A DNA stretch of 64,000 bases from Pseudomonas fortuita (GTDB lineage Bacteria; Pseudomonadota; Gammaproteobacteria; Pseudomonadales; Pseudomonadaceae), in the NCBI RefSeq assembly GCF_026898135.2, contig NZ_CP114035.2, forward strand, positions 3,017,501-3,081,500, given 5' to 3'. A program made the translations under genes and the position numbers. Every line of letters starts with the position of its first letter. Position 1 is the stretch's first letter. The notes under the pieces were generated by a model that saw nothing but the letters and a program-made list of their open reading frames with translations, had not been told where the DNA came from and did not search any database. This document shows, piece by piece, positions 45,655-63,574 of this stretch.

Positions 45655-45670
45655 TCGTCCGTTTCAACTA
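45655..45670. promoter_or_regulatory. Candidate operator, site E (etfB promoter)
   Basis: TCGTCCGTTTCAACTA, one base from the consensus TMGTCCRYTNNGACGA derived from the four other sites (51825, 51856, 55114, 63559). It is 82 nt before etfB. Confidence 0.55.
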
Positions 45671-45703
45671 GTTGATCGGCGATTGTGCGCCAGTGCTCAG
45701 GTT

Positions 45704-47029
45704 TCAGGCATACGCAGAAAGGCGCGAAGGGGCGGCCAGGTGTTGATAGGTCCGCCAGAGCAGCACGATCGGTATGACGATGGTAAGGCTGACCAGCAGC
45801 AGGGCGTAGCGCAGCGACTCGTCCACCAGCACTGGCATCAGTACATCGCTCAGTAGCCCGGTTGCCAACGGGCCGATACCGACTCCGCACAAGGTCGAGA
45901 TAATGGTCTGCAGGGCGACGGCAGTCGCCCTGCGGTGGGCGGGCACCAACTGGGTCAACAACGAGAAGCAGGGGCCGACCCACCATACCGAGAAAAAGCT
46001 GCCCAGCGCACACCAGAGCATCGCGCTGGGTACCGGAACTGCACCCGCATGCAGCAGGATGTCACGTGGCCAAAGCAGGTAGATGATCAATGCGCAATTG
46101 CCGAGCACATGGCCGATGAGCGGAATGCCGATTTGCCAATGCTGGCTCCTGATCACCAGGCGGTCGGTCAGCCATCCACTGAACAACGCCCCTAGCCCGG
46201 CAAAGGTGCCGCCTACCAAGCCGGCTAGAAGGCCCGCGTAGTGCAAGGGCAGGTCATGCGATCGCACCAGGAAGCTGGCATTCCACATGGCAAAGGCATA
46301 GGCGCTGAAGGTGGTAATGCCGCAAGCCAGCACCAGGCAACGGTAGGCAGGCTGTGCCATGAGTGCCCGCGCACTGCCCAGCAGGCTTTGTATGGGCGGT
46401 GCGCCCTGGCTGGCGTGGCTATGGGGGAGGTCGAAGCGACCCCGTACCGGGTCGCGCATCACAAAGGCAAACACCGCGCTGATCAGCAGGGAAGGCAGGG
46501 CGACAGCAAAAAAAGCGCTGCGCCAGCCATATTGGTCGACCACCCAGGCGCCGGCACTAAGGGCAACGATGGTCGAAAACGTCGGCGCGGCGGTGTAGCA
46601 ACTGATGGCAAAAGAACGCCGGTGCGGTGGGTAGATATCGGCAATGATCGACATCGAGGTCGAGGTGCTTGGTGACTCGAAGACTGCTACCGCCATGCGT
46701 GCGATCACCAGCATCGCAAAGCTGGTGGACAGGCCGCAGGCCACCGTTGCCAGCGCCCACAACGAGCAGGTAATGGCCAGCAGGCGTGTGCGTGACAGGC
46801 GATCGGCCAGGCGCCCGGCTGGCAGGCCCAGCAGCACATAGACGGCAGCGAAGGCCAGGCCCGAAACCAGGCCCATGGCGGTGTCGCTGGCACCGAACTC
46901 TTGTTTGAGCGGTTCGATCATCACGGCAATGATCTGCCGCCCGACAAAGTTGTCGGCGTACATCATCGCGAGCACAAACAGCAGACCATGGCTGCGCCAG
47001 CCGATGGGTTGAGGGTGCGTACTGCTCAT
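45704..47029 (-). CDS. MFS transporter (spinster/aromatic-acid-like), likely substrate uptake for the catabolic cluster
   Basis: 441 residues from the ATG at 47029, with GGGAG 7 nt upstream. Twelve membrane segments. The motif between segments 2 and 3 is GLPAGRLADRLSRTRLL, and the N-terminus YADNFVGRQIIAVMIEPLKQ is the type found in MFS carriers of steroid and aromatic acid clusters. It is the last gene of a minus-strand run after aldolase, dehydrogenase and hydratase genes. The cargo is inferred from this context only. Confidence 0.85.
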   Translation of the reverse strand: MSSTHPQPIGWRSHGLLFVLAMMYADNFVGRQIIAVMIEPLKQEFGASDTAMGLVSGLAFAAVYVLLGLPAGRLADRLSRTRLLAITCSLWALATVACGLSTSFAMLVIARMAVAVFESPSTSTSMSIIADIYPPHRRSFAISCYTAAPTFSTIVALSAGAWVVDQYGWRSAFFAVALPSLLISAVFAFVMRDPVRGRFDLPHSHASQGAPPIQSLLGSARALMAQPAYRCLVLACGITTFSAYAFAMWNASFLVRSHDLPLHYAGLLAGLVGGTFAGLGALFSGWLTDRLVIRSQHWQIGIPLIGHVLGNCALIIYLLWPRDILLHAGAVPVPSAMLWCALGSFFSVWWVGPCFSLLTQLVPAHRRATAVALQTIISTLCGVGIGPLATGLLSDVLMPVLVDESLRYALLLVSLTIVIPIVLLWRTYQHLAAPSRLSAYA

Positions 47030-47096
47030 GGATGACTCCCGGTCAAACCGCAGAGATGGGCAATGGCCCAAGCTGTGCCTGGGCCCCGTGAAGCGG

Positions 47097-48128
47097 TCAG
47101 GCGCTGGCTTGGCGTTGCTTGGCCAGGGTCATCGCGGTGTCTTCGATCATGTCTTCCTGGCCGCCGACCATGCCGCGCCGGCCCATTTCGACAAGAATTT
47201 CCCGCGCCGGGACGCCGTACTTTTTTTCAGCGCGCTTGGCAAACAGCAGGAACGAGCCGTAGACACCCGCATAGCCCATGGTCAGGGCATCGCGATCGCT
47301 GCGGATCGGGAAGTCCATGATCGGCACCACCAGGTCCTCGGCAACGTCCTGGATACCAAACACACTCACGCCAGTTTCAATGCCCATGCGGTCGCAGACG
47401 GCCACCAGCACTTCCATGGGGGTATTGCCAGCACCCGCGCCCAAGCCTGCGCACGCGGCATCGATACGGGTGGCGCCAGCGGCAATGGCCGCGATCGAGT
47501 TGGATACGCCCATCGACAGGTTGTGATGGCCATGGAAGCCGATTTCAGTCTCGGGCTTGAGCGCTGCACGCAGCGCCGCGACCCGCGCGCTGACGTCGTG
47601 GGGCAGCAGGTAGCCGGCCGAGTCGGTGATGTAGATGCAATTGGCCCCGTAGCTCTCCATCAGCTTGCCCTGGGTGGCCAGGCCTTGCGGGCTGTTCATA
47701 TGGGCCATCATCAGGAACCCGACGCTGTCCATGCCCAGCTTGCGGGCCGCGCCAAGGTGCTGTTCGGACACGTCTGCTTCCGTGCAGTGAGTGGCGACGC
47801 GAATCGTGCTGACGCCCAGTTCGTAGGCCATCTGCAGGTGATCGACCGTGCCGATGCCCGGTAGCAGCAGTGCGGAGACCTTGGCGTTTTTCATCAGCGG
47901 GATGACCGCCGACAAATACGCCTCGTCGCTGTGCGCCGGAAAACCATAGTTCAACGAACTGCCACCCAGGCCATCGCCATGGGTCACCTCGATCAACGGC
48001 ACACCGGCGGCGTCGAGGCCACAGGCAATGTCTTTCATTTGCTGCAGGGTGATCTGGTGGCGTTTGGGGTGCATGCCGTCACGCAGGCACATGTCGTGGA
48101 CGGTGATGGATTTGCCGTGAAGGTCCAT
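47097..48128 (-). CDS. 4-hydroxy-2-oxovalerate-type aldolase (TesG/HsaF/DmpG family)
   Basis: 343 residues from the ATG at 48128. Opening [15 protein letters not shown] with catalytic Arg16, metal ligand Asp17 and His20; metal ligands H199 and H201 in FHGHHN; C-terminal communication domain for the dehydrogenase partner. The enzyme splits 4-hydroxy-2-oxo acids to pyruvate and an aldehyde that is channelled to the acylating dehydrogenase encoded 10 nt upstream. In a steroid context the aldehyde is propanal; DmpG-like enzymes of phenol degradation give acetaldehyde. Confidence 0.95.
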
Positions 48129-48138
48129 GGTGCGCTCC

Positions 48139-49068
48139 TTAGGCGATGGCAGGTTGTGGGCTGCTGGCACGCAGGGTCAGCTCGCCTTTGAGCATCGCTT
48201 CGGCAAACATCTCGGCGGTGCGCGCGGCGGCGGCGGTCATGATGTCGAGGTTGCCGGCATATTTGGGCAGATAGTCGCCCAGGCCTTCGACTTCCATGAA
48301 AATCGACACCCGGTTACCGTCGAACACCGGGCCGTTGACCAGCTTGTAGCCGGGCACATAGCGCTGGACTTGCTTGATCATGTCGGCAATCGCGGCGGTG
48401 ATGGCTGCCTGGTCAGGCTCGGTTTCGGTCAGGCAGTGCACGGTGTCACGCATGATCAGCGGCGGCTCGGCGGGGTTGACGATAATGATTGCCTTGCCCT
48501 TTTTTGCGCCGCCAACCTGTTCCACGGCCGCAGCGGTGGTACGGGTGAATTCATCGATGTTCTTGCGTGTGCCTGGGCCGACCGATTTCGAGGCCGCCGT
48601 GGCAATGATCTCGGCATAGGCCACCGGCTGCACGCTGGACACCGCGGCCACCAGCGGGATGGTCGCCTGGCCGCCACAGGTCACCATGTTGACGTTCATC
48701 GCGCCCAGGCCTAGGTTGTGCTTGAGATTGACCGGTGGCACGCAGTAGGGGCCGATGGCTGCTGGCGTCAGGTCGATCATCAGCACACCCAAGGCATTGA
48801 GCTTGCGGCTGTTTTCGGCATGCACATACGCGGAGGTAGCATCGAAGGCGATCTGGATGCCGTCTTCCATTACATGCGGTAGCAGGCCGTCGACGCCCTC
48901 GCTGGTGGTCTTCAGGCCCAGCGCGGCGGCGCGGGCCAGGCCTTCGGAGGTGGCGTCGATACCCACCATCCAGACGGGCTCCAGTACTTCACTGCGCTTG
49001 AGCTTGTACAGCAGGTCGGTACCGATGTTGCCGGGCCCGATGAGGGCGCATTTTATCTTTTTACTCAT
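48139..49068 (-). CDS. Acetaldehyde/propanal dehydrogenase, CoA-acylating (TesF/HsaG/DmpF family)
   Basis: 309 residues. NAD motif GPGNIG at 11-16, catalytic Cys131 in [10 protein letters not shown], and the dimer/aldolase contact region [12 protein letters not shown]. It converts the aldehyde from the aldolase to acyl-CoA using NAD. It lies between hydratase and aldolase in the order hydratase, dehydrogenase, aldolase, the same as tesE-F-G of Comamonas testosteroni. Confidence 0.95.
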
Positions 49069-49106
49069 GGCATTGTTCTCGATCAGAAGAAGGAACGGCC
49101 GCAGGC

Positions 49107-49898
49107 TCAGGGCACGAAGTTCAGGTGCATCTCGCCCATGCCGCTCAGCGACAGGCTGACGAAGTCACCCGGTGCGACCGGTACCAGTGGCGCAAGGGCA
49201 CCGGACAGAATGATTTCGCCCTTGCGAAACGGGATGCCCAGTCGGCCCAGGGTGTTGGCCAGCCAGGCCACGGCGGCGCAGGGGTGGCCTTGCACCGCCG
49301 AGCCCAGGCCGCTGCCCACCGGCAGGCCGTTTTTGAACAGGTGCAACTGGACCTCGGCCAGGTCCAGTTCACGCGGATCGACGCGCTGCTGGCCCAGGGC
49401 GAAAACACCGCATGAAGCGTTGTCGGCAACGGTGTCCTGAATGCGGATCTGCCAGTTCTCGATACGCGAGTCGACAATTTCGAAGCACGGCATAACCCAC
49501 TCGCTGGCCGCCAGCACATCGTTGGCGGTGATATCGGTACCTTGCAGGTCTTCGCCCAGTACAAAGGCAATCTCGCCTTCGGCCCGTGGCTGCACAAGAT
49601 GGTGGGCAGCAAAGCTGATGTCGCTGCCATCGGCAACCTGCATACGGTCGGTTAGAAAACCAAAATCGGGCTGATGCACATCGAGCATTTCTTGCACGGC
49701 GCGGCTGGTCACCCCGATTTTCTTGCCGATCACTTGCTCGCCCACCGCTTCGCGACGCGCCAGAAATCGCCGGGAGATCTGGTAGGCGTCGTCAAGGCTG
49801 ATGGCCGGGTAACGTTGGGTCAGCGGGGGCAGGCTCTGGCGTGCGTTCAGGGCATGGAACAGCTCGTCGCCCAGTGTTTCAATCAGTTGCGCATCCAT
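49107..49898 (-). CDS. 2-hydroxyhexa/penta-2,4-dienoate hydratase (TesE/HsaE/MhpD family)
   Basis: 263 residues from the ATG at 49898. Fumarylacetoacetase-like fold with metal site [12 protein letters not shown] and the family opening [23 protein letters not shown]. It hydrates the dienoate made by the C-C hydrolase, giving the 4-hydroxy-2-oxo acid for the aldolase. The start codon has no visible ribosome site, so an alternative start cannot be ruled out. The dioxygenase and hydrolase that would make its substrate are not in this window. Confidence 0.93.
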
Positions 49899-49966
49899 AG
49901 GGAGGTCGCTCTGTGGCAAGTGGATAACAGGCCGGGCCAGCTGCAGGCACGCCCGGCAAAAAGGCC

Positions 49967-50740
49967 TCAACCCGGCCAGACACTGGAATCGGCGCCGCCA
50001 TCGACATCGATGATCTTGCCGGTGACCCAGGCCGAGGCGGGGCTTGCCAGGTAAAGGGCCGCGGCGGCGATGTCCTCTGGTTGCCCCAGGCATTTGAGCG
50101 GGGTGTTGCTTTCCATCGTTTTGCGCATGGCATCGGGCATGACCCCGGCCAGGGCGTCGGTCAGGATTGGCCCTGGCGCCACCGCATTGACCCGGATCTG
50201 CGGCGCAAACTCTTGTGCCAGCAGGCGCGTCAGGTGAGTCAGGGCAGCCTTGGCGGTGCCATAGGCGCTGAAATGGCGCTGGGCATAACGGGCGGCGACC
50301 GAGGTAATGTTGATGATGTTGCCGCCCCCGGCGTCGCGCATCAGGGGTACGCAGAGCTGTGAAAGGGCATAGGCGGCGCTGACGTTGAAGCTCAACACCT
50401 GCTCGAAGTCTTGCGGGCTCATCTTCAGCGGGTCATTGGGGCCGCCGCCCCCGGCATTGTTGACCAGATGGGTGATGCGCCCCAGCTGTTCGGCGGCGTT
50501 GGCGACCAAGGCGCAGCGCTGTTCGCTGTCGGTGACATCGCAGCTCAGGGCCAGGGCGCGCCGCCCTCGGCTGCGTACCTCTTCGGCGACGGCCTCGACA
50601 TCTGCCAGCGAACGGGCGCTGCAGACTACATCAGCGCCAGCATCGGCGTAGGCCAAGGCAATGGCGCGACCGATGCCGCGGCCGCTGCCGGTGACAATGG
50701 CGACACTGCCAGTGAGGTTGAAGCGTTGCAGAATGCTCAT
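49967..50740 (-). CDS. Short-chain dehydrogenase/reductase (hydroxysteroid-dehydrogenase-like)
   Basis: 257 residues. Cofactor motif TGSGRGIG, NNAG at about 95-98, catalytic Ser in ITSVAARYAQ, and Tyr-x3-Lys in YGTAKAAL. The wording resembles 7-alpha-hydroxysteroid dehydrogenase and FabG-like SDRs. First gene of the minus-strand group that continues with hydratase, dehydrogenase, aldolase and MFS. It may oxidise a hydroxyl of a steroid nucleus. Confidence 0.85.
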   Translation of the reverse strand: MSILQRFNLTGSVAIVTGSGRGIGRAIALAYADAGADVVCSARSLADVEAVAEEVRSRGRRALALSCDVTDSEQRCALVANAAEQLGRITHLVNNAGGGGPNDPLKMSPQDFEQVLSFNVSAAYALSQLCVPLMRDAGGGNIINITSVAARYAQRHFSAYGTAKAALTHLTRLLAQEFAPQIRVNAVAPGPILTDALAGVMPDAMRKTMESNTPLKCLGQPEDIAAAALYLASPASAWVTGKIIDVDGGADSSVWPG

Positions 50741-50782
50741 GGCTGTCCTTATTGTTCTAATGGTTCAGGGAAGACACAGTGC

Positions 50783-51763
50783 TTAGCGCGGCGCCCACAG
50801 GTCCGGCAAGCCCGGGTCGGAGGTGGCGATCAGGCGCTTGAGCAACACCTTGAGTGCCTGGCTATCACCGGCGCCAAGACGGGCAGCGATATCCTCCTCG
50901 ACGGCTTTGGCCAGGGCCACCTCCTGCAGCGAAGCCTCCCGCCCGTCGGCTGTGAGCACATAGCGGACCTGCTCATTATCAAGCTCACGGGCGACCAGGT
51001 TCTGGCGTTCCAGGAAGCGCATGCTGGTGGCGCTGACCACATGGCCGGTGTAGCCGACGAAGGCGTTGATCTCGTCCAGGGTCAGGTTGTCCCGAATGCA
51101 CAGGGTGGAGAGAATGAAGAACGCGTGTTCATCGAGCTGCTGGTTCTTCAGCAGGCGGCGCAGTGCAAACAGCATCTGGTAGTGCGAGCGCCCGAGCAGG
51201 TAGCCGAGCAAGTCTTCGGTGTAACTGCACTCGGGCGGTGGCGGGGTAGTTGCCAGGCGCAGTTCGTTGCGCGGCTTGCGCATCGCCAGAGCGTACTGGC
51301 CACTCTGGAAGGCCAGGGGCGCGCGGTCGCTATGGTCGAAAGCGAGCACTTCGCCGACGAAGATGACATGGTCGCCGCCTTCATACTGGAAGGCTGTGCG
51401 GCATTGGAAGCGCGCCGTACAGTCTTGCAGCAGCGGTGCCTCGCTGATACCTGTGTCGAGCTGGATTTCGGAGAACTTGTCTTCACCCTGGCGGGCAAAG
51501 CGGCCGGACAGCGTTTCCTGCTCCGTCGACAAAACGTGCACGTTCCAGTGGCGACCACCGCTGAACACCGGCAGACTGCGGGCATTCTTGGACAGACTCC
51601 AGAGCACCAGAGGTGGGTTGAGCGAGACCGAGTTGAAGCTGTTGGCCGTGATGCCAACGGGCGAGCCGTCTTCGGCCTTGGTAGTGATGATGGTCACTCC
51701 CGTGGTAAAGGTGCCGAGCGCGGCGCGAAACGCTTGAGGGTCGAAACAGGCGGGCGTTGCCAT
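50783..51763 (-). CDS. Flavin reductase with C-terminal MarR-like domain (reductase of two-component monooxygenase)
   Basis: 326 residues from the ATG at 51763, which has GAGG 6 nt upstream (an ATG at 51775 is less well placed). Residues 1-165 form a flavin reductase domain (FRAALGTFTTGVTIITT, then VGITANSFNSVSLNPPLVLW). The remaining ~155 look like a MarR-type winged helix (DEHAFFILSTLCIRDNLTLD, then SATSMRFLERQNLVARE). This two-part layout is that of the C1 reductase of p-hydroxyphenylacetate hydroxylase, where the tail senses substrate and releases inhibition. The partner oxygenase is probably the gene at 55205. It is divergent from the plus-strand operon across sites A and B. Confidence 0.9.
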   Translation of the reverse strand: MATPACFDPQAFRAALGTFTTGVTIITTKAEDGSPVGITANSFNSVSLNPPLVLWSLSKNARSLPVFSGGRHWNVHVLSTEQETLSGRFARQGEDKFSEIQLDTGISEAPLLQDCTARFQCRTAFQYEGGDHVIFVGEVLAFDHSDRAPLAFQSGQYALAMRKPRNELRLATTPPPPECSYTEDLLGYLLGRSHYQMLFALRRLLKNQQLDEHAFFILSTLCIRDNLTLDEINAFVGYTGHVVSATSMRFLERQNLVARELDNEQVRYVLTADGREASLQEVALAKAVEEDIAARLGAGDSQALKVLLKRLIATSDPGLPDLWAPR

Positions 51764-51824
51764 GATGGGCCTCATGGAATGAGTGTGCGTGCTGGCAGTA
51801 TTCCCAGCGTCACGGGGCTTTGCA

Positions 51825-51840
51825 TCGTCTCAACGGACTA
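51825..51840. promoter_or_regulatory. Candidate operator, site A
   Basis: Minus-strand reading TAGTCCGTTGAGACGA; 62 nt before the flavin reductase start. Member of the five-site motif TMGTCCRYTNNGACGA. Confidence 0.65.
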
Positions 51841-51855
51841 ACGTTTTTGGCTCGA

Positions 51856-51871
51856 TCGTCCACTTGGACGA
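51856..51871. promoter_or_regulatory. Candidate operator, site B
   Basis: TCGTCCACTTGGACGA, with perfect 7-base arms, 110 nt before the aldehyde dehydrogenase start. It is 16 nt from site A, and the two together control the divergent promoters. Confidence 0.65.
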
Positions 51872-51980
51872 GGCGGTCTCCGGGGTCTGGGGCTAGTTTG
51901 CGGGGCAGGGCGTCGTGCAACGACGGCCATGGTGGGCACAGAGGCGACATGCTGGCCCTTGTTCAGTTGAGGAGGCACCA

Positions 51981-53417
51981 ATGAGTTGTGCAAATTCTTC
52001 CGTCGACATGCTGTCGGCCTTGCTGCGTGAACAAAAGGCTGCGTTCAACGCTCAAGGGGCTGTCACTGCCGTGGCCCGCCGCGCGCGGATCCAGCGGGTG
52101 ATCGACATGCTGGTGGCGCACCACGAAGCGCTGGCCGAGGCGATGGATGCGGACTTTGGCGGCCGGCCCCAGGGTTTTTCGTTGATGAATGATGTGCTGG
52201 GTTCGCTCGGGTCCCTCAAGCACGCGCGCGACCACCTCGAAGGATGGATGCAGGATGAGCCGCGGCCCGTCTTCAGCCCTTACGATCAGCTGGGCGCCGA
52301 GGCCTGGGTGATGTATCAGCCCAAGGGTACGGTGGGCATTCTGGGCACCTGGAACGCCCCCCTGTATACCTTGCTCAGCCCCCTGGGTTCGGCGTTGGCG
52401 GCGGGTAACCGGGCGATCCTCAAGCCTTCGGAGGTGGTGCCACGTACTGCTGCGCTGGTGGCGAAGCTGTTTGCCGAGGCGTTCGATCCGCTCGAAGTGG
52501 CTGTGGTCACCGGTGGCGCGGACCTGGCCCAGGCCTTCACCGCACAGCCGTTCGACCACCTGGTGTTTACCGGCAGTACCGCGGTGGCCAGGTCCGTGAT
52601 GCGTAACGCGGCCGAACACCTGGTGCCGTTGACGCTGGAACTGGGCGGAAAGTCGCCGGTCATCGTCGCCCGCAGCGCCGACCTGGGCACCGCAGCGTTT
52701 CGTATTGCGCTTTCCAAGACCACCAACAGTGGCCAGGTCTGCATCAACCCGGACCTGGTCTACGTGCCACGCGAGCAGCTGGAAACCTTTCTTGAGGCCT
52801 TTGCCAGCGCTTACCGCCAGTTCATCCCTGAGGTGAGCGACAACCCGGACGTGGTCGCGGTGGTCAATGCCCAACACCTGTCCCGTGTTGAAAACCTGGT
52901 TCAGCAGGCGCTTCAAGCCGGTGCCCGGGTAGTGAGCCTGCCCTACGCGCAAGCGGCTGATGAGCAAAACCGCCGCCGACCGCTGCAACTGGTGATCGAC
53001 CCGCCGCAAGGCAGCCTGATTCTGCATGAAGAAATCTTCGGCCCGGCAATGGTGGTTCTGCCTTTTGATGAGGTTGATCAGGTCATCGCTCAGATCAACG
53101 CCCGCCCGCGGCCTTTGGCCCTTTACTACTTTGGCAGCGACGCCAAGGAGCAGCGCCAGGTGCTGGAGCACACATTGTCCGGCGGTGTCACCCTCAACGA
53201 TGTGATGATGCATGCCGCCTTGCATGATGCCCCGTTCGGTGGGGTTGGCGGGTCAGGCATGGGCCACTACCACGGTCGCGAAGGCTTTATCGAGTTCAGC
53301 CACCTGCGCACAGTACTCAAGGCGCCCGAGCATGATCCGCGCGGTGAATGGGGCCTGCTACCGCCTTACAGCGAACACTTCCTGGCCGCGATGAAAGCGC
53401 AGATCACCCCGGACTGA
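51981..53417 (+). CDS. Aldehyde dehydrogenase (coniferyl-aldehyde-dehydrogenase-like)
   Basis: 478 residues from the ATG at 51981, with GGAGG 6 nt upstream. Catalytic Glu in LELGGKSPVIVA, Cys in NSGQVCINPDLV and the NAD site FTGSTAVARSVM. It belongs to the class-3 / CalB-like group acting on aromatic or long-chain aldehydes. First gene of the plus-strand operon of the cluster; it may oxidise a side-chain aldehyde intermediate. Confidence 0.9.
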   Translation: MSCANSSVDMLSALLREQKAAFNAQGAVTAVARRARIQRVIDMLVAHHEALAEAMDADFGGRPQGFSLMNDVLGSLGSLKHARDHLEGWMQDEPRPVFSPYDQLGAEAWVMYQPKGTVGILGTWNAPLYTLLSPLGSALAAGNRAILKPSEVVPRTAALVAKLFAEAFDPLEVAVVTGGADLAQAFTAQPFDHLVFTGSTAVARSVMRNAAEHLVPLTLELGGKSPVIVARSADLGTAAFRIALSKTTNSGQVCINPDLVYVPREQLETFLEAFASAYRQFIPEVSDNPDVVAVVNAQHLSRVENLVQQALQAGARVVSLPYAQAADEQNRRRPLQLVIDPPQGSLILHEEIFGPAMVVLPFDEVDQVIAQINARPRPLALYYFGSDAKEQRQVLEHTLSGGVTLNDVMMHAALHDAPFGGVGGSGMGHYHGREGFIEFSHLRTVLKAPEHDPRGEWGLLPPYSEHFLAAMKAQITPD

Positions 53418-55113: not shown

Positions 55114-55129
55114 TAGTCCGCTTTGACGA
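55114..55129. promoter_or_regulatory. Candidate operator, site C
   Basis: TAGTCCGCTTTGACGA, 75 nt before the monooxygenase start and 40 nt after the amidase stop, which suggests an internal promoter for the second half of the operon. Confidence 0.6.
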
Positions 55130-55204
55130 TGAATATTCGCCTGCTGCATTCGATCATCAACCAAGACTCGCGCAACCGCGCAACGAGATTGGGAGAACGA
55201 ACGG

Positions 55205-56392
55205 ATGGACAGCATGCGAGTAAGAACGCCGGAAGAAATCGAACTGCTTGAACACGCCCGGCGCCTGGTGCCCGCCCTCAAAAGCCGCACCGCGCGCGCT
55301 GACCGCGAGTTCCGGGTACCGGACGAAACCATCTTCGAATTGCAACAGGCCGGCTTGTTGCGGGCCTTGCAACCACGTGCGTTTGGCGGCTACGAGGTCG
55401 ATCCGCGGACGTTTTTCGAAATCCAGATGATCCTCGCCGAGGGCTGCATGTCCACAGCGTGGATTTATGGCGTGATGGGCGTACACCCCTGGCAGCTGGC
55501 GCGCTACCCGATCGAGGCCCAGCGCGATGTATGGGGCCAGGACCATACCACCCTGATCTCGTCCACCTACATGCCCGTGGCCAAGGTAACCGTGGTCGAA
55601 GGCGGTTATCGCATCAGTGGTCGCTGGGGCTTTTCCAGCGGCAGCGAACACTGCCAATGGTGCTTCCTTGGCGGGGTGCTGCCCGCCGATGGCGACCGTG
55701 CAGCGGAGCACGGCACCTTCCTGATCCCGCGCAGCGACTACCGTATCGAGCACAACTGGGACGTGCTGGGCCTGCGCGGCACCGGCAGCCACGACATTGT
55801 GGTCGAAGATGCCTTCGTGCCGGCACACCGCGTGCAACGCACCAATAACTGCACGCTGGACGCGACGCCAGGACGCCTGGTGAACACCAATCCGATTTAT
55901 GCCATTCCTTTCGCCCAGGTGTTCACGCGCGCTGTGTCCTCATCGGCCATCGGTGCCTTGCAGGGGGCGATCAACGAATTTCGTGCCAATGCCGCTGCGC
56001 ACATCGGCAAGCACGGCATGAAAACCGCCGATGACCCGGTGGCGCAAACCACCGTTGCCGAGGCGACGATCATCGTCGACAGCCTGCGGCTGGTACTGGA
56101 GCGGAACTACGCGCACCTGATGGCGCTGGCCGAAGCGGGTGAGTACCCGGATGTGGAAACCCGTCTGCTGTACCGCTACCAATCCTCCTATGTCACCAAT
56201 ATCTGCGCCGAGAAGGTCAACGAACTGCTGCGCTGCATGGCCGCTTCCGGGCTTTATAACACCAACCCCGTGGCGCGCCTGTTCCGCGACCTGCACCAGG
56301 CACGTGGGCATATCGCCAACAACTACATGGCCTTCAGCCGCAGCCTTGGCGCCGTGCAACTGGGCCTGCCCAACCCTGATCCTTACGTATGA
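55205..56392 (+). CDS. Flavin-dependent monooxygenase, oxygenase component (HsaA/TesA2-like, acyl-CoA dehydrogenase fold)
   Basis: 395 residues. Group D flavin monooxygenase of the HsaA / HpaH-C2 family: helical N-terminus ending QAGLLRALQPRAFGGYEVDP, flavin region GRWGFSSGSEHCQWCFLGGV, and DVLGLRGTGSHDIVVEDAFV. It uses FMNH2 made by a separate reductase to hydroxylate a phenol ortho to its OH. In steroid degradation this turns 3-HSA into the catechol 3,4-DHSA. The likely reductase is at 50783. ATG 55205 is preceded by GGGAG at a wide spacing; ATG 55214 is possible. Confidence 0.9.
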   Translation: MDSMRVRTPEEIELLEHARRLVPALKSRTARADREFRVPDETIFELQQAGLLRALQPRAFGGYEVDPRTFFEIQMILAEGCMSTAWIYGVMGVHPWQLARYPIEAQRDVWGQDHTTLISSTYMPVAKVTVVEGGYRISGRWGFSSGSEHCQWCFLGGVLPADGDRAAEHGTFLIPRSDYRIEHNWDVLGLRGTGSHDIVVEDAFVPAHRVQRTNNCTLDATPGRLVNTNPIYAIPFAQVFTRAVSSSAIGALQGAINEFRANAAAHIGKHGMKTADDPVAQTTVAEATIIVDSLRLVLERNYAHLMALAEAGEYPDVETRLLYRYQSSYVTNICAEKVNELLRCMAASGLYNTNPVARLFRDLHQARGHIANNYMAFSRSLGAVQLGLPNPDPYV

Positions 56393-56482: not shown

Positions 56483-58192
56483 ATGACAGCTAAAGCTCAG
56501 CCTGTTTCACACTACGACGTGATCGTCGTCGGCTCCGGTGCCGGTGCGATGACCTCGGCGCTGTTTGCTGCCGAGCAGGGTCTATCGGTACTGGTTGTCG
56601 AGAAAAGCGACAAGTTCGGCGGTACGTCGGCGATCTCCGGCGGCGGCATCTGGATTCCCAATAACCACTACTTTGCCGCCAAAGGCGGTGGCGACAGTGT
56701 GGAGCTGGCCCTGCAGTACCTCAAAGCTGCCACCGGTGAGCATGGCGATGACAAGCGCTTGCGTGCCTACGTCAAGCACGCGCCGCAAATGATCCGGGCC
56801 CTGGTGGACAACAGCCATGTGCGTTACGCCGTGGCGGCGAAGTACCCGGACTACTATCCGCAACTGCCAGGCTCGCTGGCCGGGGGGCGCACCCTCGACC
56901 CGGAACTGTTCGATACCAGCCTGCTCGGTGATGAACTGGCCAACCTGCGCACACCGTCACCCTCGACACTGCTGATGGGGCGCATCGCCTGGACCGCCCG
57001 GCACGCGCACAAGGCCATGTCGCGCTCCTTTGGCTGGCGCCTGCTGATTCTCGGCCTGATGCTGCGCTACAAGCTCGACTTCAAATGGCGCCGCAAAAGC
57101 CGGCGCGACCGCCGCGCGGCCTTGGGCAGTGCGCTGGTTGCGTCGCTACGCCGCTCGTTGATGGACCGCAACATCCCACTGTGGTTGAACACCGACTTTC
57201 AGAACCTGATCACCGATAACGGCCGGGTCATTGGCATGCAGGTTTGTCGTGACGGGCAGACGCTGCAGCTGCATGCCCGCCATGCGGTGATCTTCGGCTC
57301 CGGGGGGTTTGAACAGAACCAGGCTTTGCGCGAGCGCTACCTACCACAGCCCACCCTGCGTGACTGGAGCGCCACGCCACCGGGCAACAACACCGGTGCT
57401 GCGTTGCAAGCCGGTATCGAACTGGGTGCGGCGACCGCCCTGATGGATTGGGCCTGGTGGGCGCCGACCATTACCGTGCCCGGCGAAGAAAAACCCCGTG
57501 GGATATTTGCCGAGCGGGCGTTCCCTGGTGCCATCGTGGTCAACAGCCTGGGCCGGCGCTTTGTCAATGAGGCAGCGCCGTACCTGGAATTTGTCGACGC
57601 CATGTACCGCGACAACCAGCACACCGGCGGCAAGTCGATCCCATCCTGGGTGATCTTCGACGGCCATTTTCGCTTCAACTACGCCATGGGGCCGTTGATG
57701 CCGGCCCAGGTCATGCCCGACAGCCGACTGCGCAAGGAATGGCTCAATACCTTGTATTTCAAGGCTGACAGCCTGGCGGCGCTGGCGGCGCAGATCGGCG
57801 TCGACCGCGCAGGGCTCGAGCAGACCGTGCAGAAGATGAACGCCTACGCCCGCAGCGGCGTCGATGCCGACTTCGGCCGTGGCGGTAACGTGTTCGACCG
57901 TTATTACGGCGACAGCAACGTCAAACCCAACCCGTGCCTGGCGCCCCTGAGCAAGGGGCCGTACTACGCGATGCGCCTGGACGCTGGCGATATCGGCACC
58001 AAAGGTGGGCTATTGACCAACGAACACGCCCAGGTTGTGAGCCAGGACGGCGAGGTCATTCCTGGCCTATATGCCATTGGCAACTGCTCGGCGTCGGTCA
58101 TGGGCACCAGCTATCCCGGTGCGGGCGGCACCCTGGGGCCGGCCATGACGTTCGGCTATATCGCGGCCTATCACATTGCTGCCAACCGTTGA
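56483..58192 (+). CDS. kstD: 3-ketosteroid delta1-dehydrogenase-like FAD enzyme (KstD/TesH)
   Basis: 569 residues from the ATG at 56483. N-terminal FAD motif VIVVGSGAGAMTSALFAAEQ, then KFGGTSAISGGGIWIP. C-terminal catalytic/FAD part SKGPYYAMRLDAGDIGTKGG and SYPGAGGTLGPAMTFGY, the KstD pattern with the Tyr and Gly of the active site. It desaturates C1-C2 of 3-ketosteroids. It is directly followed, 9 nt on, by a second FAD dehydrogenase, as tesH-tesI in Comamonas. Confidence 0.9.
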   Translation: MTAKAQPVSHYDVIVVGSGAGAMTSALFAAEQGLSVLVVEKSDKFGGTSAISGGGIWIPNNHYFAAKGGGDSVELALQYLKAATGEHGDDKRLRAYVKHAPQMIRALVDNSHVRYAVAAKYPDYYPQLPGSLAGGRTLDPELFDTSLLGDELANLRTPSPSTLLMGRIAWTARHAHKAMSRSFGWRLLILGLMLRYKLDFKWRRKSRRDRRAALGSALVASLRRSLMDRNIPLWLNTDFQNLITDNGRVIGMQVCRDGQTLQLHARHAVIFGSGGFEQNQALRERYLPQPTLRDWSATPPGNNTGAALQAGIELGAATALMDWAWWAPTITVPGEEKPRGIFAERAFPGAIVVNSLGRRFVNEAAPYLEFVDAMYRDNQHTGGKSIPSWVIFDGHFRFNYAMGPLMPAQVMPDSRLRKEWLNTLYFKADSLAALAAQIGVDRAGLEQTVQKMNAYARSGVDADFGRGGNVFDRYYGDSNVKPNPCLAPLSKGPYYAMRLDAGDIGTKGGLLTNEHAQVVSQDGEVIPGLYAIGNCSASVMGTSYPGAGGTLGPAMTFGYIAAYHIAANR

Positions 58193-58201
58193 GGAATTGC
58201 C

Positions 58202-59896
58202 ATGCCAGCCGCTGTCAAATCGACATGTACCGATATCCAGCCGGCATTGCAGGTGGCCGATGCCGACGCCATGCTCTGGGATGACCACTGTGATGTGCTG
58301 GTGATCGGCTGGGGGGCGGCCGGTGCCTGCGCCGCCCTTGAGGCCCGCGCCCAGGGTGCTGACGTGCTGGTCGCCGACCGTTTTACCGGCGGCGGTGCCA
58401 GTGCCAAAAGCGGTGGCGTGGTTTACGCCGGCGGTGGCACCCGCCAGCAGCAGGCCGCTGGGTTCAGCGACACGCCCGAAGCGATGTTCGCCTATCTCAA
58501 GCACGAAACCCAGGGTGTGGTCGACGATGCTACCTTGCGGCGGTTTTGCCAGGACAGTGCCAGCAACCTGGCCTGGCTGGAGGGGCATGGCGTGCCCTAT
58601 GCCCACAGCATGCCGCCCGGTGGCAAAACCTCGTATCCAGCCGATGGCCAGTTTCTGTATTACTCCGGCAATGAGCTGGTGCCGTCGCACCGAAGCGAGT
58701 TGCCGCCGGCCCCGCGTGGCCATCGCACGGTAGGCAGGGGCCAATGTGGCGCGGTGCTGTACGCGCAGCTGAAGGCGGCTTGCCTGCGCAACGGTGTGCG
58801 GCCGCAAGTTCAGTCCGCTGCCCGGCGTCTGGTGAGGGATCACACGGGCAGGGTCGTCGGCGTGGAACTGTGGTGCCTGCCGGCCGGCAGTGCCCAGGCT
58901 CGGTTGCATGCCAAATTGGCTGCGCGTGCCGAACGGCTGCAGAACTTTGCCCCGCGCTACTGCGATACCTTGCGCAAACGCGTGCACCAGCTGGAACTCG
59001 ACTTTGCCCGGCCGCGGCTGGTACGCGCCCGGCGTGGCGTAGTGCTGAGCACCGGTGGCTTCATCTTCAACCGCGAGATGGTCAGCGAGCATGCCCCCAA
59101 GTTTCGCCGCAACTTCAAAGTCGGCGCGACCGGCTGCGATGGCAGTGGCGTACGCCTGGGCGTGAGTGTCGGTGGGGTCAGCGACCGACTGCAGCGGGTG
59201 TCGGCCTGGCGCTTTATCAACCCACCGTTGTGCTGGCCCAAGGGCATTGTGGTCAACACCCTCGGGCAGCGCTTCGTCAACGAAGAAGTCTACGGCGCCA
59301 CCCTGGGCCAGCCCCTGTGTGAAGAGCAGGGCGGCAAGGCCTGGCTGGTGCTGGACGCACGCCTGCGCAAGCAGTCGATCAAGCAAGCGCTGTTCGACGG
59401 TTACTGGTGGTTCCAGAGCTTGCCGGCATTGCTGCTGATGCTGCGCGGTGTGCGCAAAGGCCAGAGCATCGAGCAGTTGGCCCAGGCCACGGGCATGCGC
59501 GCGGATGTATTGCGCAGCGCATTGCAAGCCTACAACACAGCTGCCCGGGGGGACGCCGAGGATGCCTTTGGCAAGTCGCAAAGCAGCCGTCAGGTACTCG
59601 ACCAGGGCCCTTACTATGCCTGTGACATCTCTGTCAGCAACCCCTTGTTCCCCCTTGGGGCGTTGACCCTGGGCGGCCTCAAGGTCAATGAAGACAGCGG
59701 CGCGGTGCTGGGCCCTGAAGGCCTGCCAATACCCGGTTTGTACGCCGCCGGCCGTACCGCCATCGGCATTCCCTGCCATTTGTACGTCAGCGGCCTGTCG
59801 CTGGCCGATTGTGTGTTTTCCGGGCGACGTGCCGGACGGTCGTTGACGGCGGCCACGGCTGACATCGAAATCGAACCCAGCGAGCAATTGATATGA
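58202..59896 (+). CDS. 3-oxo-5-alpha-steroid 4-dehydrogenase-like FAD enzyme (TesI type)
   Basis: 564 residues. N-terminal FAD motif VLVIGWGAAGACAALEARAQ, GGGASAKSGGVVYAGGGT, and the C-terminal ending GLYAAGRTAIGIPCHLYVSG then LSLADCVFSGRRAGRS. It belongs to the fumarate-reductase/KstD superfamily; the YVSGLSLADC ending is typical of delta4(5alpha) dehydrogenases. It introduces the C4-C5 double bond in 5-alpha-3-ketosteroids. GAGGA 6 nt before the ATG; its stop overlaps the reductase start by 4 nt. Confidence 0.85.
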   Translation: MPAAVKSTCTDIQPALQVADADAMLWDDHCDVLVIGWGAAGACAALEARAQGADVLVADRFTGGGASAKSGGVVYAGGGTRQQQAAGFSDTPEAMFAYLKHETQGVVDDATLRRFCQDSASNLAWLEGHGVPYAHSMPPGGKTSYPADGQFLYYSGNELVPSHRSELPPAPRGHRTVGRGQCGAVLYAQLKAACLRNGVRPQVQSAARRLVRDHTGRVVGVELWCLPAGSAQARLHAKLAARAERLQNFAPRYCDTLRKRVHQLELDFARPRLVRARRGVVLSTGGFIFNREMVSEHAPKFRRNFKVGATGCDGSGVRLGVSVGGVSDRLQRVSAWRFINPPLCWPKGIVVNTLGQRFVNEEVYGATLGQPLCEEQGGKAWLVLDARLRKQSIKQALFDGYWWFQSLPALLLMLRGVRKGQSIEQLAQATGMRADVLRSALQAYNTAARGDAEDAFGKSQSSRQVLDQGPYYACDISVSNPLFPLGALTLGGLKVNEDSGAVLGPEGLPIPGLYAAGRTAIGIPCHLYVSGLSLADCVFSGRRAGRSLTAATADIEIEPSEQLI

Positions 59897-60921
59897 GCCT
59901 GGATTACCTGTCAGTACGTGTAACCCGCGTGATTGAAGAGACTGCCGACAGCCGCTCCCTGGAGTTCGAGGTGCCAGAAGCGCTTGCCGAGCGCTTGCGC
60001 TATCGACCAGGGCAATTCCTGACCTTGCGTGTGCCTCACCAGGGGGGGTGGTTGCCGCGTTGTTACTCTCTGTCGAGCACGCCACTGCTCGATGAGCCAT
60101 TGCGGGTCACGATCAAGCGGGTGCGCGATGGGCGCGCCTCGAACTGGCTCTGTGACGCCGTGCAGGCGGGCGATACCTTGCAGGTGCTGGCGCCGGCCGG
60201 GGTGTTTGTGCCGCGCCAGCTGGACACCGACCTGCTGCTGTTCGGCGGCGGCAGTGGCATCACCCCGGTGCTGTCCATCCTGCGCTCGGCGCTGTTGGCG
60301 GGCACTGGGCGTATTCTGCTGATCTACGCCAACCGCGACGAAGCGTCGGTGATATTCCGTGACTCGCTCAAGGCCCTGGCCAGGGCGCACCCACAGCGCC
60401 TGCAAGTGATCCACTGGCTCGACTCGGTGCAGGGCATTGCGTCGGTGAGCCAGTTGGCCGAACTGGCGCGCCCGTTCGCGAGTGCCGAGGCGTTCATCTG
60501 CGGCCCCGGACCGTTCATGGATGCTGCCGTCGCTGCCCTGCAGACGTTAGGCATGCCGAGTGCGCAGGTCCATGTCGAGCGCTTTGTCTCGCTGCCCGAA
60601 GAGGGCGAAGTCGCAGTGCCGGCAGCTGTCGATACCCGCCGCCCGAGCAGCCAGCTTTCGGTGCGCCTGGACGGTGAAGAGTTCGAGGTGCCCTGCGCCG
60701 AAGGTGAAACCCTGCTTAACGCCATGCGCCGGGCCGGCCTGAGCCCGCCAAGTTCTTGTCTGGTCGGCTCCTGTGCAACCTGCATGTGCACGGTCGAACG
60801 GGGTGAGGTGCAGATGTTGCGCAACGATGCCCTTGACCAGCAGGAGATAGACCAGGGCTGGACGCTGGCTTGCCAGTCCCTGGCCCGCAGCGAGCACCTG
60901 CGGGTGCTCTTTCCCGAATAA
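59893..60921 (+). CDS. Ferredoxin-NAD(P) reductase with C-terminal 2Fe-2S domain (KshB-like)
   Basis: 342 residues. FAD-binding RCYSLS at 56-61, NAD-binding GGGSGITPV at 118-126, and a C-terminal plant-type 2Fe-2S domain with Cys289, Cys294, Cys297 and Cys327. The layout matches KshB, the reductase for 3-ketosteroid 9-alpha-hydroxylase, and PaaE-like reductases. The Rieske oxygenase KshA is not in the window. Confidence 0.88.
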   Translation: MSLDYLSVRVTRVIEETADSRSLEFEVPEALAERLRYRPGQFLTLRVPHQGGWLPRCYSLSSTPLLDEPLRVTIKRVRDGRASNWLCDAVQAGDTLQVLAPAGVFVPRQLDTDLLLFGGGSGITPVLSILRSALLAGTGRILLIYANRDEASVIFRDSLKALARAHPQRLQVIHWLDSVQGIASVSQLAELARPFASAEAFICGPGPFMDAAVAALQTLGMPSAQVHVERFVSLPEEGEVAVPAAVDTRRPSSQLSVRLDGEEFEVPCAEGETLLNAMRRAGLSPPSSCLVGSCATCMCTVERGEVQMLRNDALDQQEIDQGWTLACQSLARSEHLRVLFPE

Positions 60922-60942
60922 CCCGATGGCGAGTTTGTCACT

Positions 60943-62580
60943 ATGACTGCATGTTCAGCATTACCGGGCAGCGTGCATGCCTGGAACCTGTTGCCTTTGT
61001 CGATTCCTGCTTTGTTGTTCGCCAGTGCTGAACGCTTTGCCGGTCGGGCAGCGATCGAGGAAGACGGCATTGCGACCGATTACCGGGATTTGCCCGGGTT
61101 GGCACTGGGTGTCTGCCGCAGCCTGATGGCACTGGGGATCAAGGCGGGCGACCGCGTGGCGATCTGGGCACCCAATTGCCGCGACTGGGTGATCGCCGCC
61201 TTGGGCGTGCATTGCGCGGGGGCTGTGCTGGTACCGATCAATACCCGCATGAAAGGCGCCGAGGCGGCCGATATTCTGGCGCGCAGCCAGGCGCGGGTGC
61301 TGTTGACGCAAGGGGTATTTCTGGGGTTGGACTACCCGGCCATGCTGGCGCCGCTACGTCCGGCCAGCCTGGAACAGCTGGTGGTGTTCGGTACACAGCC
61401 GCCTCAGGCGGCCAGCGACCTGGATTGGGCCAGTTTTCTCGCCAGGGGCGAGTCTGTCAGTGAGCTGCAAGCCCGCCAGCGTGCGGTGGCGGTGGGCCCG
61501 CGGGACTTGTCCGACTTGCTGTTTACCTCCGGCACCACCGGCAAACCCAAGGGTGTGATGAGTGCCCATGGGCAGAACCTGCGGGCATACAACGAATATG
61601 TGCGGGTCATTGGCCTGCAGCCGGGTGATCGTTACCTGATCATCAACCCGTTTTTTCATGCCTTTGGCTACAAGGCCGGTTGGCTAACCTGCATGCTGGC
61701 TGGCGCGACTATCCTGCCGCATGCGGTGTTCGATGCCGAAGCGGTGTTCCAGCGCATTGCCGCCGAGCGCATCAGCGTGCTGCCAGGGCCGCCCACGCTG
61801 TACTTGTCGATGCTGGCCCACCCGCGCCTGGCCCAGACTGATCTGTCCAGCTTGCGCATCGCTGTGACTGGTTCATCGACGATCCCGCCGGTGCTGATCG
61901 AGCGCATGCGGCGGGAGCTCGGAGTCGACGTGGTGACCACCGCCTATGGGCTGACTGAGTGTGGCGGCCTGGCGACCATCTGCAACCCGGATGACCCTGC
62001 CGACATCGTTGCCGGCACCAGCGGCCGGGCCATCGATGGCACTGAAGTGTGCATTCGTTCGGCAGATAATCAACCGGTGGCCACGGGCGTGTCAGGAGAA
62101 ATCTGCCTGCGCGGTTTTCATGTGATGCAGGGGTATTTCAATGACCCGCAAGCGACGGCGCAGGCCATTGATGCCGAGGGCTGGCTACACACGGGCGACA
62201 TCGGCAATCTGGATGTGCATGGCAACCTGCAAATTACCGACCGCCTCAAGGATATGTTCATTGTCGGCGGCTTCAACTGCTATCCGGCAGAGATCGAGGC
62301 GGGTTTGATCGAGCATCCGGCCATCGCGCAGGTGGCGGTGATCGGCGTTGCGGATGAGCGCATGGGGGAGGTGGGGTGTGCCTGCGTGGTATTGCGTGCA
62401 GGCCAGCACCTGGATGAGCCGTCTCTGATCGCCTGGGCCAGAGAGCGGATGGCCAACTACAAAGTGCCGCGACAGGTTCGGTTCTTTGAAGCGTTGCCGG
62501 TGAATGCCTCGAACAAGGTGGTCAAACCTGAGCTGCGTGCGGCGGTTCTGCAGGGCGAGGGCGGGCTGGCCTGGCGATGA
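60943..62580 (+). CDS. Acyl-CoA synthetase (FadD3-like, AMP-forming)
   Basis: 545 residues. AMP-binding P-loop LLFTSGTTGKPKGVM, A5 motif AYGLTECGGLATI, A7 TGDIGNLD, A8 RLKDMFIVGGFNCYP and A10 lysine in NASNKVVKPEL. It activates a carboxylic acid to its CoA ester. FadD3 does this for HIP, the ring C/D remnant left after rings A and B are removed, which fits the gene order; other acids are possible. Last gene of the plus operon. Confidence 0.88.
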   Translation: MTACSALPGSVHAWNLLPLSIPALLFASAERFAGRAAIEEDGIATDYRDLPGLALGVCRSLMALGIKAGDRVAIWAPNCRDWVIAALGVHCAGAVLVPINTRMKGAEAADILARSQARVLLTQGVFLGLDYPAMLAPLRPASLEQLVVFGTQPPQAASDLDWASFLARGESVSELQARQRAVAVGPRDLSDLLFTSGTTGKPKGVMSAHGQNLRAYNEYVRVIGLQPGDRYLIINPFFHAFGYKAGWLTCMLAGATILPHAVFDAEAVFQRIAAERISVLPGPPTLYLSMLAHPRLAQTDLSSLRIAVTGSSTIPPVLIERMRRELGVDVVTTAYGLTECGGLATICNPDDPADIVAGTSGRAIDGTEVCIRSADNQPVATGVSGEICLRGFHVMQGYFNDPQATAQAIDAEGWLHTGDIGNLDVHGNLQITDRLKDMFIVGGFNCYPAEIEAGLIEHPAIAQVAVIGVADERMGEVGCACVVLRAGQHLDEPSLIAWARERMANYKVPRQVRFFEALPVNASNKVVKPELRAAVLQGEGGLAWR

Positions 62581-62639
62581 GGCCCCCATTGATCAACCCC
62601 GCAGGCCGTAGGAATATCGCGTAGCGACGTAGCAGAGAG

Positions 62640-62666
62640 GGGGCCCGGAGTGCAGCGTAGGGCCCC
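62640..62666. terminator. Stem-loop between convergent ligase and hydratase genes
   Basis: Arms GGGGCCC and GGGCCCC around 13 nt in the 117-bp gap. Likely bidirectional terminator without a clear U tract. Confidence 0.5.
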
Positions 62667-62697
62667 TGGAGCGTTCCGTGGTGCTGGGCCGGCCCCA

Positions 62698-63483
62698 TCA
62701 GTGCCCTTCAAACCGGGCAGGCCGCTTATCAATGAATGCCTGCATGCCTTCCTTCTGGTCACGTGAGGCAAACAACAACGCATTGGCCTTGCGCTCCAGC
62801 GCCAAACCCGCTTCCAGCGGTGCATCCATCCCCGCAAGAATCACCTCTTTGATCTGCTCGGCAGCCAACGGCGGCATTGCCGCAACCATCTGCGCCAATT
62901 TCAAGCCGTGGGCGAGCACCTGATCATCGGCCACCACCTCACTGACCAGCCCCGCAATCCAGGCCTCTTCAGCCGTGATCGGCTGGCCGGTCAGCGCCAT
63001 CCGCATTGCCTTGGCCTTGCCGACCGCCCGCACCAACCGCTGGGTGCCGCCAATCCCGGGCATGATCCCGATCTTGATTTCCGGCTGGCAGAAGCGTGCA
63101 CTCTGCCCGGCAACAATGATATCGGCGAGCATCGCCAGCTCGCAGCCACCGCCATAGGCGTAACCGCATACCGCCGCGATCACAGGTTTGGGGCAGTGCT
63201 GGATCGGCGCCCAGACCCGCTCGGTGTGGCGCTGATAGATATCAATGGGACCCACCCCGGCCAGGCTGTTGATATCGCCCCCGGCGGCGAACACCTTGTC
63301 GCCGCCGGTCAGCAGAATGCAGCGCACATCAGCATTGCTCCCCAGCTCAATGAAGTAGTGCGACAGCAGCGCCTGTAGCTCCAGGCTCAGGGCATTGGTG
63401 GCGTGCGGGCGGTTGAGCCGCACCAGGGCGACACCTGGGGCCGGGTACTCCAGCAGCACCGACGCGGTAACTGAATCGGACAT
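62698..63483 (-). CDS. Enoyl-CoA hydratase/isomerase family protein
   Basis: 261 residues from the ATG at 63483. Crotonase fold: oxyanion-hole segments FAAGGDINSLAG and AYGGGCELAM, and both catalytic glutamates (CELAM and QPEIKIGIMPG). It acts on CoA esters in beta-oxidation. It is divergent from an SDR gene across candidate site D, so it is inferred to take part in degrading the CoA ester made by the neighbouring ligase. Confidence 0.92.
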   Translation of the reverse strand: MSDSVTASVLLEYPAPGVALVRLNRPHATNALSLELQALLSHYFIELGSNADVRCILLTGGDKVFAAGGDINSLAGVGPIDIYQRHTERVWAPIQHCPKPVIAAVCGYAYGGGCELAMLADIIVAGQSARFCQPEIKIGIMPGIGGTQRLVRAVGKAKAMRMALTGQPITAEEAWIAGLVSEVVADDQVLAHGLKLAQMVAAMPPLAAEQIKEVILAGMDAPLEAGLALERKANALLFASRDQKEGMQAFIDKRPARFEGH

Positions 63484-63558
63484 GATCAACCTCTGGCAGT
63501 AGGCACCGCAGAGCGGGCGCCATTGCGCGGATTGTTGCCAGCGCGGCGCCACGCTTCA

Positions 63559-63574
63559 TCGTCCGTTCAGACGA
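63559..63574. promoter_or_regulatory. Candidate operator, site D
   Basis: TCGTCCGTTCAGACGA in the divergent space, 76 nt from the hydratase start and 58 nt from the SDR start. Member of the five-site motif. Confidence 0.65.

What the first reader, a model, noticed from the sequence alone, without database searches (positions are those of the whole stretch)
45655..63574. Five copies of a 16-bp inverted repeat mark a regulon that joins etfBA to the steroid-type cluster
TMGTCCRYTNNGACGA occurs at 51825 (minus), 51856, 55114 and 63559, with a one-mismatch copy at 45655. All five are intergenic and 58-110 nt before a start codon: flavin reductase, aldehyde dehydrogenase, monooxygenase, hydratase/SDR and etfB. 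I did not see it elsewhere in the window. No regulator gene is present in this cluster, so the binding protein must be encoded outside. It differs from the KstR (TAGAAC/GTTCTA) type. That the sites are bound is inference.
Basis: partly seen in the sequence, partly recalled or inferred. Interest (0 to 1): 0.85.

Follow-up and report, generated by a model that had tools for sequence, protein, structure and literature searches.

The report
Promoter switch for bacterial steroid breakdown
A short repeated DNA signal sits at a nearly fixed distance from the predicted start point of the gene groups for steroid-type breakdown in this Pseudomonas, and it turns up with one type of regulator gene in other bacteria, so that regulator probably binds it to switch the pathway on.

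Summary
In the 6.31-Mb genome all 6 exact copies of the symmetrised motif TMGTCCRYTNNGACKA lie in one steroid/bile-acid-type cluster that runs about 45 kb past the window. It has 14 intergenic sites facing 15 promoters. Read towards the gene, the site is TAGTC-N6-GACGATG. At one fixed distance 14 of 15 have an A and 12 of 15 a T where the -11 and -7 bases of a -10 element fall, which centres the motif near -42.5, a class II activator position. A regulator is in the cluster, beyond the window's edge: a LuxR-type protein resembling TesR/TeiR. Of 298 genomes of the genus, 50 of 53 with the regulator have three or more exact motifs, against 1 of 245 without. Motif and spacing recur in Vibrio, Betaproteobacteria and Sphingobium. 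The etfBA link is supported: it is a second etfBA copy, the other copy lacks the motif, and on a Vibrio plasmid etfBA directly precedes the regulator behind a motif. Binding is inferred.

The parts
45655..45670 (-). motif copy facing etfB (TAGTTGAAACGGACGA on the minus strand; left half degenerate)
   Evidence: identical in G217 and G265
45627..45632 (-). predicted -10 element TACCGT for etfBA
   Evidence: A at offset 24 and T at offset 28 after the 16-mer
44824..45573 (-). etfB, second copy in the genome
   Evidence: Pfam ETF (given as 44824-45564); NCBIfam EtfB-type models below cut-off; paralogue at genome 4338174; ATG read
43882..44823 (-). etfA
   Evidence: Pfam ETF and ETF_alpha
51825..51840 (-). 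motif copy facing the flavin reductase operon (TAGTCCGTTGAGACGATG)
51797..51802 (-). predicted -10 element AATACT
50783..51775 (-). flavin reductase, HsaB-like, first gene of a leftward run (SDR, hydratase, dehydrogenase, aldolase, MFS transporter) to 45704
   Evidence: NCBIfam HsaB 129.2 bits, below its cut-off of 230
51856..51871 (+). motif copy facing the aldehyde dehydrogenase gene (TCGTCCACTTGGACGA)
51894..51899 (+). predicted -10 element TAGTTT
51915..53417 (+). aldehyde dehydrogenase (the ATG at 51981 is a likelier start), followed by an amidase
   Evidence: ATG read
55114..55129 (+). motif copy facing the HsaA-like monooxygenase operon (TAGTCCGCTTTGACGATG)
55152..55157 (+). predicted -10 element GATCAT
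55205..56392 (+). HsaA-like monooxygenase; then two FAD_binding_2 (KstD-like) dehydrogenases, a reductase and an AMP-binding ligase up to 62580
   Evidence: NCBIfam HsaA 369.7 bits, cut-off 450
63559..63574 (.). motif copy between two divergent genes, with a -10 on both sides
   Evidence: A24 and T28 in both directions
63597..63602 (+). predicted -10 element TAGAGT for the SDR operon
63531..63536 (-). predicted -10 element AACAAT for the enoyl-CoA hydratase gene
62698..63483 (-). enoyl-CoA hydratase
   Evidence: ORF given to 63552; ATG read
63633..64000 (+). SDR gene, cut by the window end (to 64418 in continued window numbering); first gene of a run with OB-fold/MaoC, thiolase-like, acyl-CoA dehydrogenase and ligase genes

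Best explanation
The repeats are operators of one regulon that covers nearly the whole steroid (bile-acid-type) degradation cluster. The binding protein is most likely the 416-residue LuxR-type regulator, probably GAF-PAS-HTH, encoded in the same cluster at genome 3123488-3124738, a TesR/TeiR-like protein. It would bind as a dimer at -42.5, in place of a -35 element, and recruit RNA polymerase to a weak -10 element in response to a steroid-derived signal (class II activation). The regulator gene stands at the end of a gene run that begins with such a site, so activation is likely self-reinforcing. etfBA is a duplicated electron-transfer flavoprotein pair put under the same switch, plausibly to take electrons from the pathway's acyl-CoA dehydrogenases (at least six such genes lie in the cluster). 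Shown by computation: the sites, their confinement, the -10 spacing, the co-occurrence with the regulator and the recurrence in other classes. Inferred: binding, activation, operons, the ligand and the substrate.
For: Six of six exact sites in the genome lie in the cluster, and so do 6 of 6 exact matches of a 44-base pattern that adds the -10. In 28 flanks (14 sites, both directions) A24 plus T28 occurs 12 times at that offset and at most 4 times at any other; 2000 shuffles never exceeded 7. Independent sets give the same offset: 24 of 93 dereplicated flanks in Pseudomonas loci (next best 10, one base away) and 11 of 27 in the others (next 4). Co-occurrence with the regulator is 50 of 53 against 1 of 245 genomes (Fisher p about 5e-52). 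87 exact motifs stand in 80 regulator loci, against a mean of 0.18 and at most 8 for 300 shuffled patterns. A genome of another family with three regulator homologues has 12 exact 44-base matches, against 0 for the reversed control. Over 7 homologues the HTH is 69-98% identical while residues 1-180 are 31-64%. It is the only DNA-binding regulator among 52 of 55 called cluster genes scanned.
Against: No binding or expression data. G225 has a 35%-identity homologue and no exact motif. 30 of the 80 regulator loci have no exact full motif within the DNA held, among them L117 and L145 of the 13 non-Pseudomonas ones; 10 of 80 lack even the looser TMGTC-N6-GACKA. Seven loci with weaker homologues (E 1e-41 to 1e-48) have none. 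G269 has three exact motifs without a detected regulator. Three of 15 promoters (73472, 99815, 107293) miss the exact -10 spacing or its T; in Burkholderia 1 of 2 and in Cupriavidus 1 of 3 exact sites have it. The etfB site is the weakest of the window copies. In the 67 Pseudomonas loci other dyads are more widespread than this one. Many genomes are related, so counts of genomes are not independent events; the tool scored at most 6 candidates per genome.
Confidence: 0.85

Rival explanations
1. The motif is a true operator, but it is bound by another regulator (for example a TetR-type repressor encoded elsewhere), and the LuxR-type gene only travels with the cluster.
For: Several other regulators of steroid genes are described in C. 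testosteroni (PMC6678751, passages).
Against: The site is centred near -42.5, an activator's place. It is found with the LuxR-type gene in Vibrio, Caballeronia, Cupriavidus and Sphingobium. No TetR domain was found in 52 of 55 called cluster genes. I could not test steroid clusters that lack the LuxR-type gene.
Confidence: 0.1
2. The repeats are part of the promoter only (a handed -35-like element for an alternative sigma factor), not an operator.
For: The site is handed and at a nearly fixed distance from the -10.
Against: It is a dyad: in the 13 non-Pseudomonas loci GTCCG-N2-CGGAC is the most widespread 5-base dyad (8 loci) and GTCC-N4-GGAC ties for the most widespread 4-base one (11 loci). 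The 63559 site has a -10 on both sides. The -10 looks like the sigma-70 kind.
Confidence: 0.04
3. Chance or compositional repeat in coding-rich DNA.
For: Reversed control patterns give similar or higher whole-genome counts; 3 of 10 cluster sites are covered by some long ORF.
Against: Confinement to the cluster, placement between genes, -10 spacing and recurrence in other classes.
Confidence: 0.01

Closest known systems
TesR/TeiR of Comamonas testosteroni (LuxR-type positive regulator of steroid degradation)
   Same: LuxR-type HTH protein in a steroid degradation cluster; here too on the same strand and downstream of a tesB-like extradiol dioxygenase gene (tesB to tesR, as in PMC6678751 and PMC13101464, passages).
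   Different: TesR/TeiR has been described as a polar membrane protein with kinase activity (passages); here Pfam shows only the HTH and no strong hydrophobic segment is seen. I saw no TesR/TeiR operator in the listings or in passages of six papers.
lux-box type class II activation by LuxR-family regulators (recalled)
   Same: Dyad centred near -42.5, overlapping the -35 region.
   Different: Different sequence; probably a GAF-PAS sensor in place of an acyl-homoserine-lactone domain (weak structural evidence).
KstR / KstR2 regulons of actinobacteria
   Same: One motif across a steroid catabolic cluster.
   Different: TetR-type repressors with other operators; a review states that KstR1/KstR2 homologues are absent from bile-acid-degrading Proteobacteria (PMC8399759, passages).
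EdcR of Caenibius tardaugens (estrogen genes)
   Same: Palindrome at several promoters of a steroid cluster.
   Different: TetR-type repressor; site TnnCnnTACnAnTnGTAnnGnnA over the -10 box (PMC8700777, passages).

Membership tests
TesR/TeiR | C-terminal LuxR-type HTH | tested here: met
   PF00196 24.3 bits, cut-off 23.5
TesR/TeiR | sequence orthology to C. testosteroni TesR | not testable with these tools
   no Comamonas TesR among the listed hits (lists capped); the 2004 TeiR paper is not held
TesR/TeiR | position at the end of the tesB-tesR gene run | tested here: inconclusive
   tesB-like gene at 90010 and regulator at 105988 on the same strand, continued window numbering; genes between not compared with C. 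testosteroni one by one
TesR/TeiR | needed for induction of steroid genes | not testable with these tools
   needs an experiment; PMC8399759 mentions two TeiR-like genes in the P. stutzeri Chol1 cluster and an unpublished deletion of one that delayed cholate growth (passage)
TesR/TeiR | kinase activity and membrane location (reported for TeiR) | tested here: inconclusive
   Pfam shows HTH matches only; best 19-residue hydropathy 1.24; model of modest confidence, mean pLDDT 68.8, pTM 0.49
class II activator promoter | dyad centred at about -41.5 to -42.5 upstream of a -10 element | tested here: met
   12 of 15 promoters with A and T where -11 and -7 fall; transcription starts not measured
KstR/KstR2 regulon | a TetR-type regulator gene with the cluster | tested here: not met
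   no TetR domain in 52 of 55 called cluster genes
KstR/KstR2 regulon | KstR-type operator | not tested

The most novel reading that the evidence does not exclude
One operator-promoter module (TAGTC-N6-GACGATG with a -10 element at a fixed distance) read by a directly DNA-binding GAF-PAS-LuxR-type steroid sensor controls steroid catabolism across Alpha-, Beta- and Gammaproteobacteria, with positive feedback through the sensor's own operon and recruitment of duplicated etfBA. This would replace the picture of a membrane kinase cascade for the TesR/TeiR group.
Probability: 0.6. Interest if true: 0.72.

Novelty: new member of a known kind. Interest (0 to 1): 0.64.

Why it matters
[quoted passage not shown] A defined operator with a predicted transcription start and a named candidate regulator makes that directly testable, lets unlinked steroid genes be found by motif search, and gives a design for steroid-responsive reporters. 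It also offers a reason why a second etfBA copy sits beside the cluster.

Tried and rejected
A regulator outside the cluster: not needed, since one is inside it. A TetR explanation: no such domain in 52 of 55 called cluster genes; of the other three, two are ORFs antisense to genes scanned and one (100865-102376) spans two loci and was not scanned. The right end also has a PAS histidine kinase with a receiver (111546-113618), which I did not pursue. Solved structures of the regulator by sequence: none at E 0.001. The fold search gave matches to GAF and PAS sensors with low TM-scores (0.18-0.31 by query length in the listed rows), with VqmA and EL222 matched in part, so the domain names are weak. 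No match in phage records. No NCBIfam model reaches its cut-off for it. Raw genome-wide motif counts were rejected as evidence, because the reversed control pattern is as frequent. Two or more etfB copies as a mark of the regulator: 27 of 53 regulator genomes against 38 of 245 others (my count), an enrichment but not a rule.
Full report
What is there. The window is bases 3017501-3081500 of a 6,311,744-base chromosome. It comes from a Pseudomonas near P. putida W15Oct28: the regulator copy in that named record (L071) is 98% identical. The dyad is better written TMGTCCRYTNNGACKA; this has six exact copies, again all in the cluster.

The cluster goes on past the window. I joined three further stretches to the window and number on from 64000. 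Scanning at up to two mismatches gives 14 intergenic sites: 45655, 51825, 51856, 55114, 63559, 73472, 79443, 79493, 87619, 89995, 99815, 102405, 107293 and 109026; the remaining hits of that scan lie inside called genes. Gene calls are my own simple ones; some called starts are the ATG inside the motif itself and are surely too early. Genes behind the sites include HsaA/HsaB-like enzymes, FAD_binding_2 (KstD-like) dehydrogenases, KshA (KshA_C 228.5 bits, cut-off 23.3), an extradiol dioxygenase, MaoC/OB-fold and thiolase-like side-chain enzymes, acyl-CoA dehydrogenases, CoA-transferase-like genes, DUF1302, DUF1329 and MMPL proteins. The HsaA, HsaB and HsaC models score below their NCBIfam cut-offs, so 'steroid-type' is safe and the exact substrate is inference.

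Promoter geometry. Read towards the gene the site is handed, TAGTC-N6-GACGATG; of the two bases after the 16-mer the first is T in 13 of 15 and the second G in 13 of 15. At bases 24 and 28 after the 16-mer, A stands in 14 of 15 and T in 12 of 15 promoters, jointly in 12, while no other offset exceeds 3. Because I chose directions by the downstream gene, I repeated the count on all 14 sites in both directions: still 12 of 28 at that offset, at most 4 elsewhere, and never above 7 in 2000 shuffles. A binomial estimate corrected for 50 offsets is about 2e-8. The A and T match the two most conserved bases of a -10 element, -11 and -7 (recalled); that puts the centre of the dyad at about -42.5. Of the three exceptions, 73472 and 107293 have a -10-like hexamer one base off and 99815 has TATACC in place.

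Other genomes. In 298 genomes of the window's genus (unnamed, drawn by the tool, G000 included) 53 encode the regulator at E 1e-40 or better. Of these, 52 of 53 have at least one exact motif and 50 of 53 three or more; without it 35 of 245 have one or more and 1 of 245 three or more (my counts from the tables; Fisher tests). In two of the genomes whose regulator is only about 41% identical (G046, G027), and in one more (G204), the neighbours look like steroid-type genes by the first 45 residues, and motif copies stand among them. In 80 loci around relatives (67 Pseudomonas, 13 others) there are 87 exact motifs against a mean of 0.18, at most 8, for 300 shuffled patterns; 50 of 80 loci have at least one, and 11 of the 13 others. 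The looser TMGTC-N6-GACKA is in 70 of 80, all 13 others included. The -10 spacing reappears in both sets. De novo, GTCCG-N2-CGGAC is the most widespread 5-base dyad in the 13 others, but ranks fourth in the Pseudomonas loci.

Plasmid records. I fetched five of the 19 records with a relative. Exact symmetric sites, and those with the -10 bases in at least one direction: Vibrio 3 and 3, Burkholderia 2 and 1, Caballeronia 4 and 3, Cupriavidus 3 and 1, Sphingobium 1 and 1 (beside a KshA gene, -10 bases in both directions). Shuffle means for exact sites in the first four are 0.1-0.2; Sphingobium was not shuffled. One Burkholderia site lies within the regulator match. In 369 genomes drawn from the class, 8 have a match at E 1e-40; the one with strong homologues besides G000 (G521) has 12 exact matches of motif plus -10 and none of the reversed control; seven weaker-homologue loci have no site.

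The regulator. It is the only match in this genome. Pfam finds an HTH only. The model, mean pLDDT 68.8, suggests a GAF-like part, a PAS-like part and the HTH, with weak structural matches. Against 7 homologues the HTH is 69-98% identical and the first 180 residues 31-64%, as expected if the DNA site is kept and the sensor drifts. In this genome the gene is the third of a run behind the 102405 site; in the Caballeronia and Cupriavidus loci a site lies about 160 and 200 bases before the regulator match. So positive feedback is likely.

etfBA. The genome has two etfB copies, 98% identical in protein. The two etfBA stretches are 96% identical over 1713 bases, while the upstream DNA differs, and the 196 bases before the other copy hold no motif within one mismatch. 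The site and its -10 bases are kept in G217 and G265, which are near relatives. On the Vibrio alfacsensis plasmid, etfB, etfA and the regulator gene follow one another behind an exact site at 18090 with the -10 bases in place. So the link between etfBA and the cluster is well supported, and in Vibrio it takes in the regulator itself.

Against. See the Against line: G225, the 30 of 80 loci without an exact motif, the weaker homologues, G269, the imperfect spacing at some sites, the ORF cover of some sites and the reversed control counts. The genomes are related, so the independent support is the -10 spacing within one genome and the recurrence in other classes.

Literature. Papers name TesR/TeiR as positive regulator and report kinase activity and polar location (PMC6678751; PMC8399759; passages only). 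TeiR-like genes in a Pseudomonas stutzeri steroid cluster are already mentioned there. PMC6895838 (passages) repeats a report that tesR-like genes are only in C. testosteroni; the present loci argue against that if the protein is a TesR orthologue, which I could not test. I saw no TesR/TeiR operator in the listings (open-access library, capped lists, titles and abstract starts) nor in the passages read from six papers. The 2004 TeiR paper is not held, so an earlier description cannot be excluded.

On recheck I added the ORF cover inside the cluster, the 30 loci without an exact motif, and the scan of 12 more cluster genes and three ORFs.

Noticed in passing
window 43847-45558 and genome 4337207-4338906: Two etfBA copies 96% identical in DNA over 1713 bases with unrelated upstream DNA: a recent duplication or gene conversion.
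   Followed up: partly
L208 1-41152: A Vibrio alfacsensis plasmid from a diseased turbot carries a steroid-type gene cluster with the same regulator type, etfBA and motif.
   Followed up: partly
L071-L150: De novo dyads besides the motif recur: ATGAA-N10-TTCAT in 36 of 80 loci and CGAGC-N2-GCTCG (69 copies in 24 loci).
   Followed up: no
G204, G015: These genomes hold five and three regulator homologues, suggesting several clusters with the same motif.
   Followed up: no
window 37082-40129: A 1015-residue protein joins an APH-type domain, a Peptidase_M23 domain and a class III aminotransferase.
   Followed up: no
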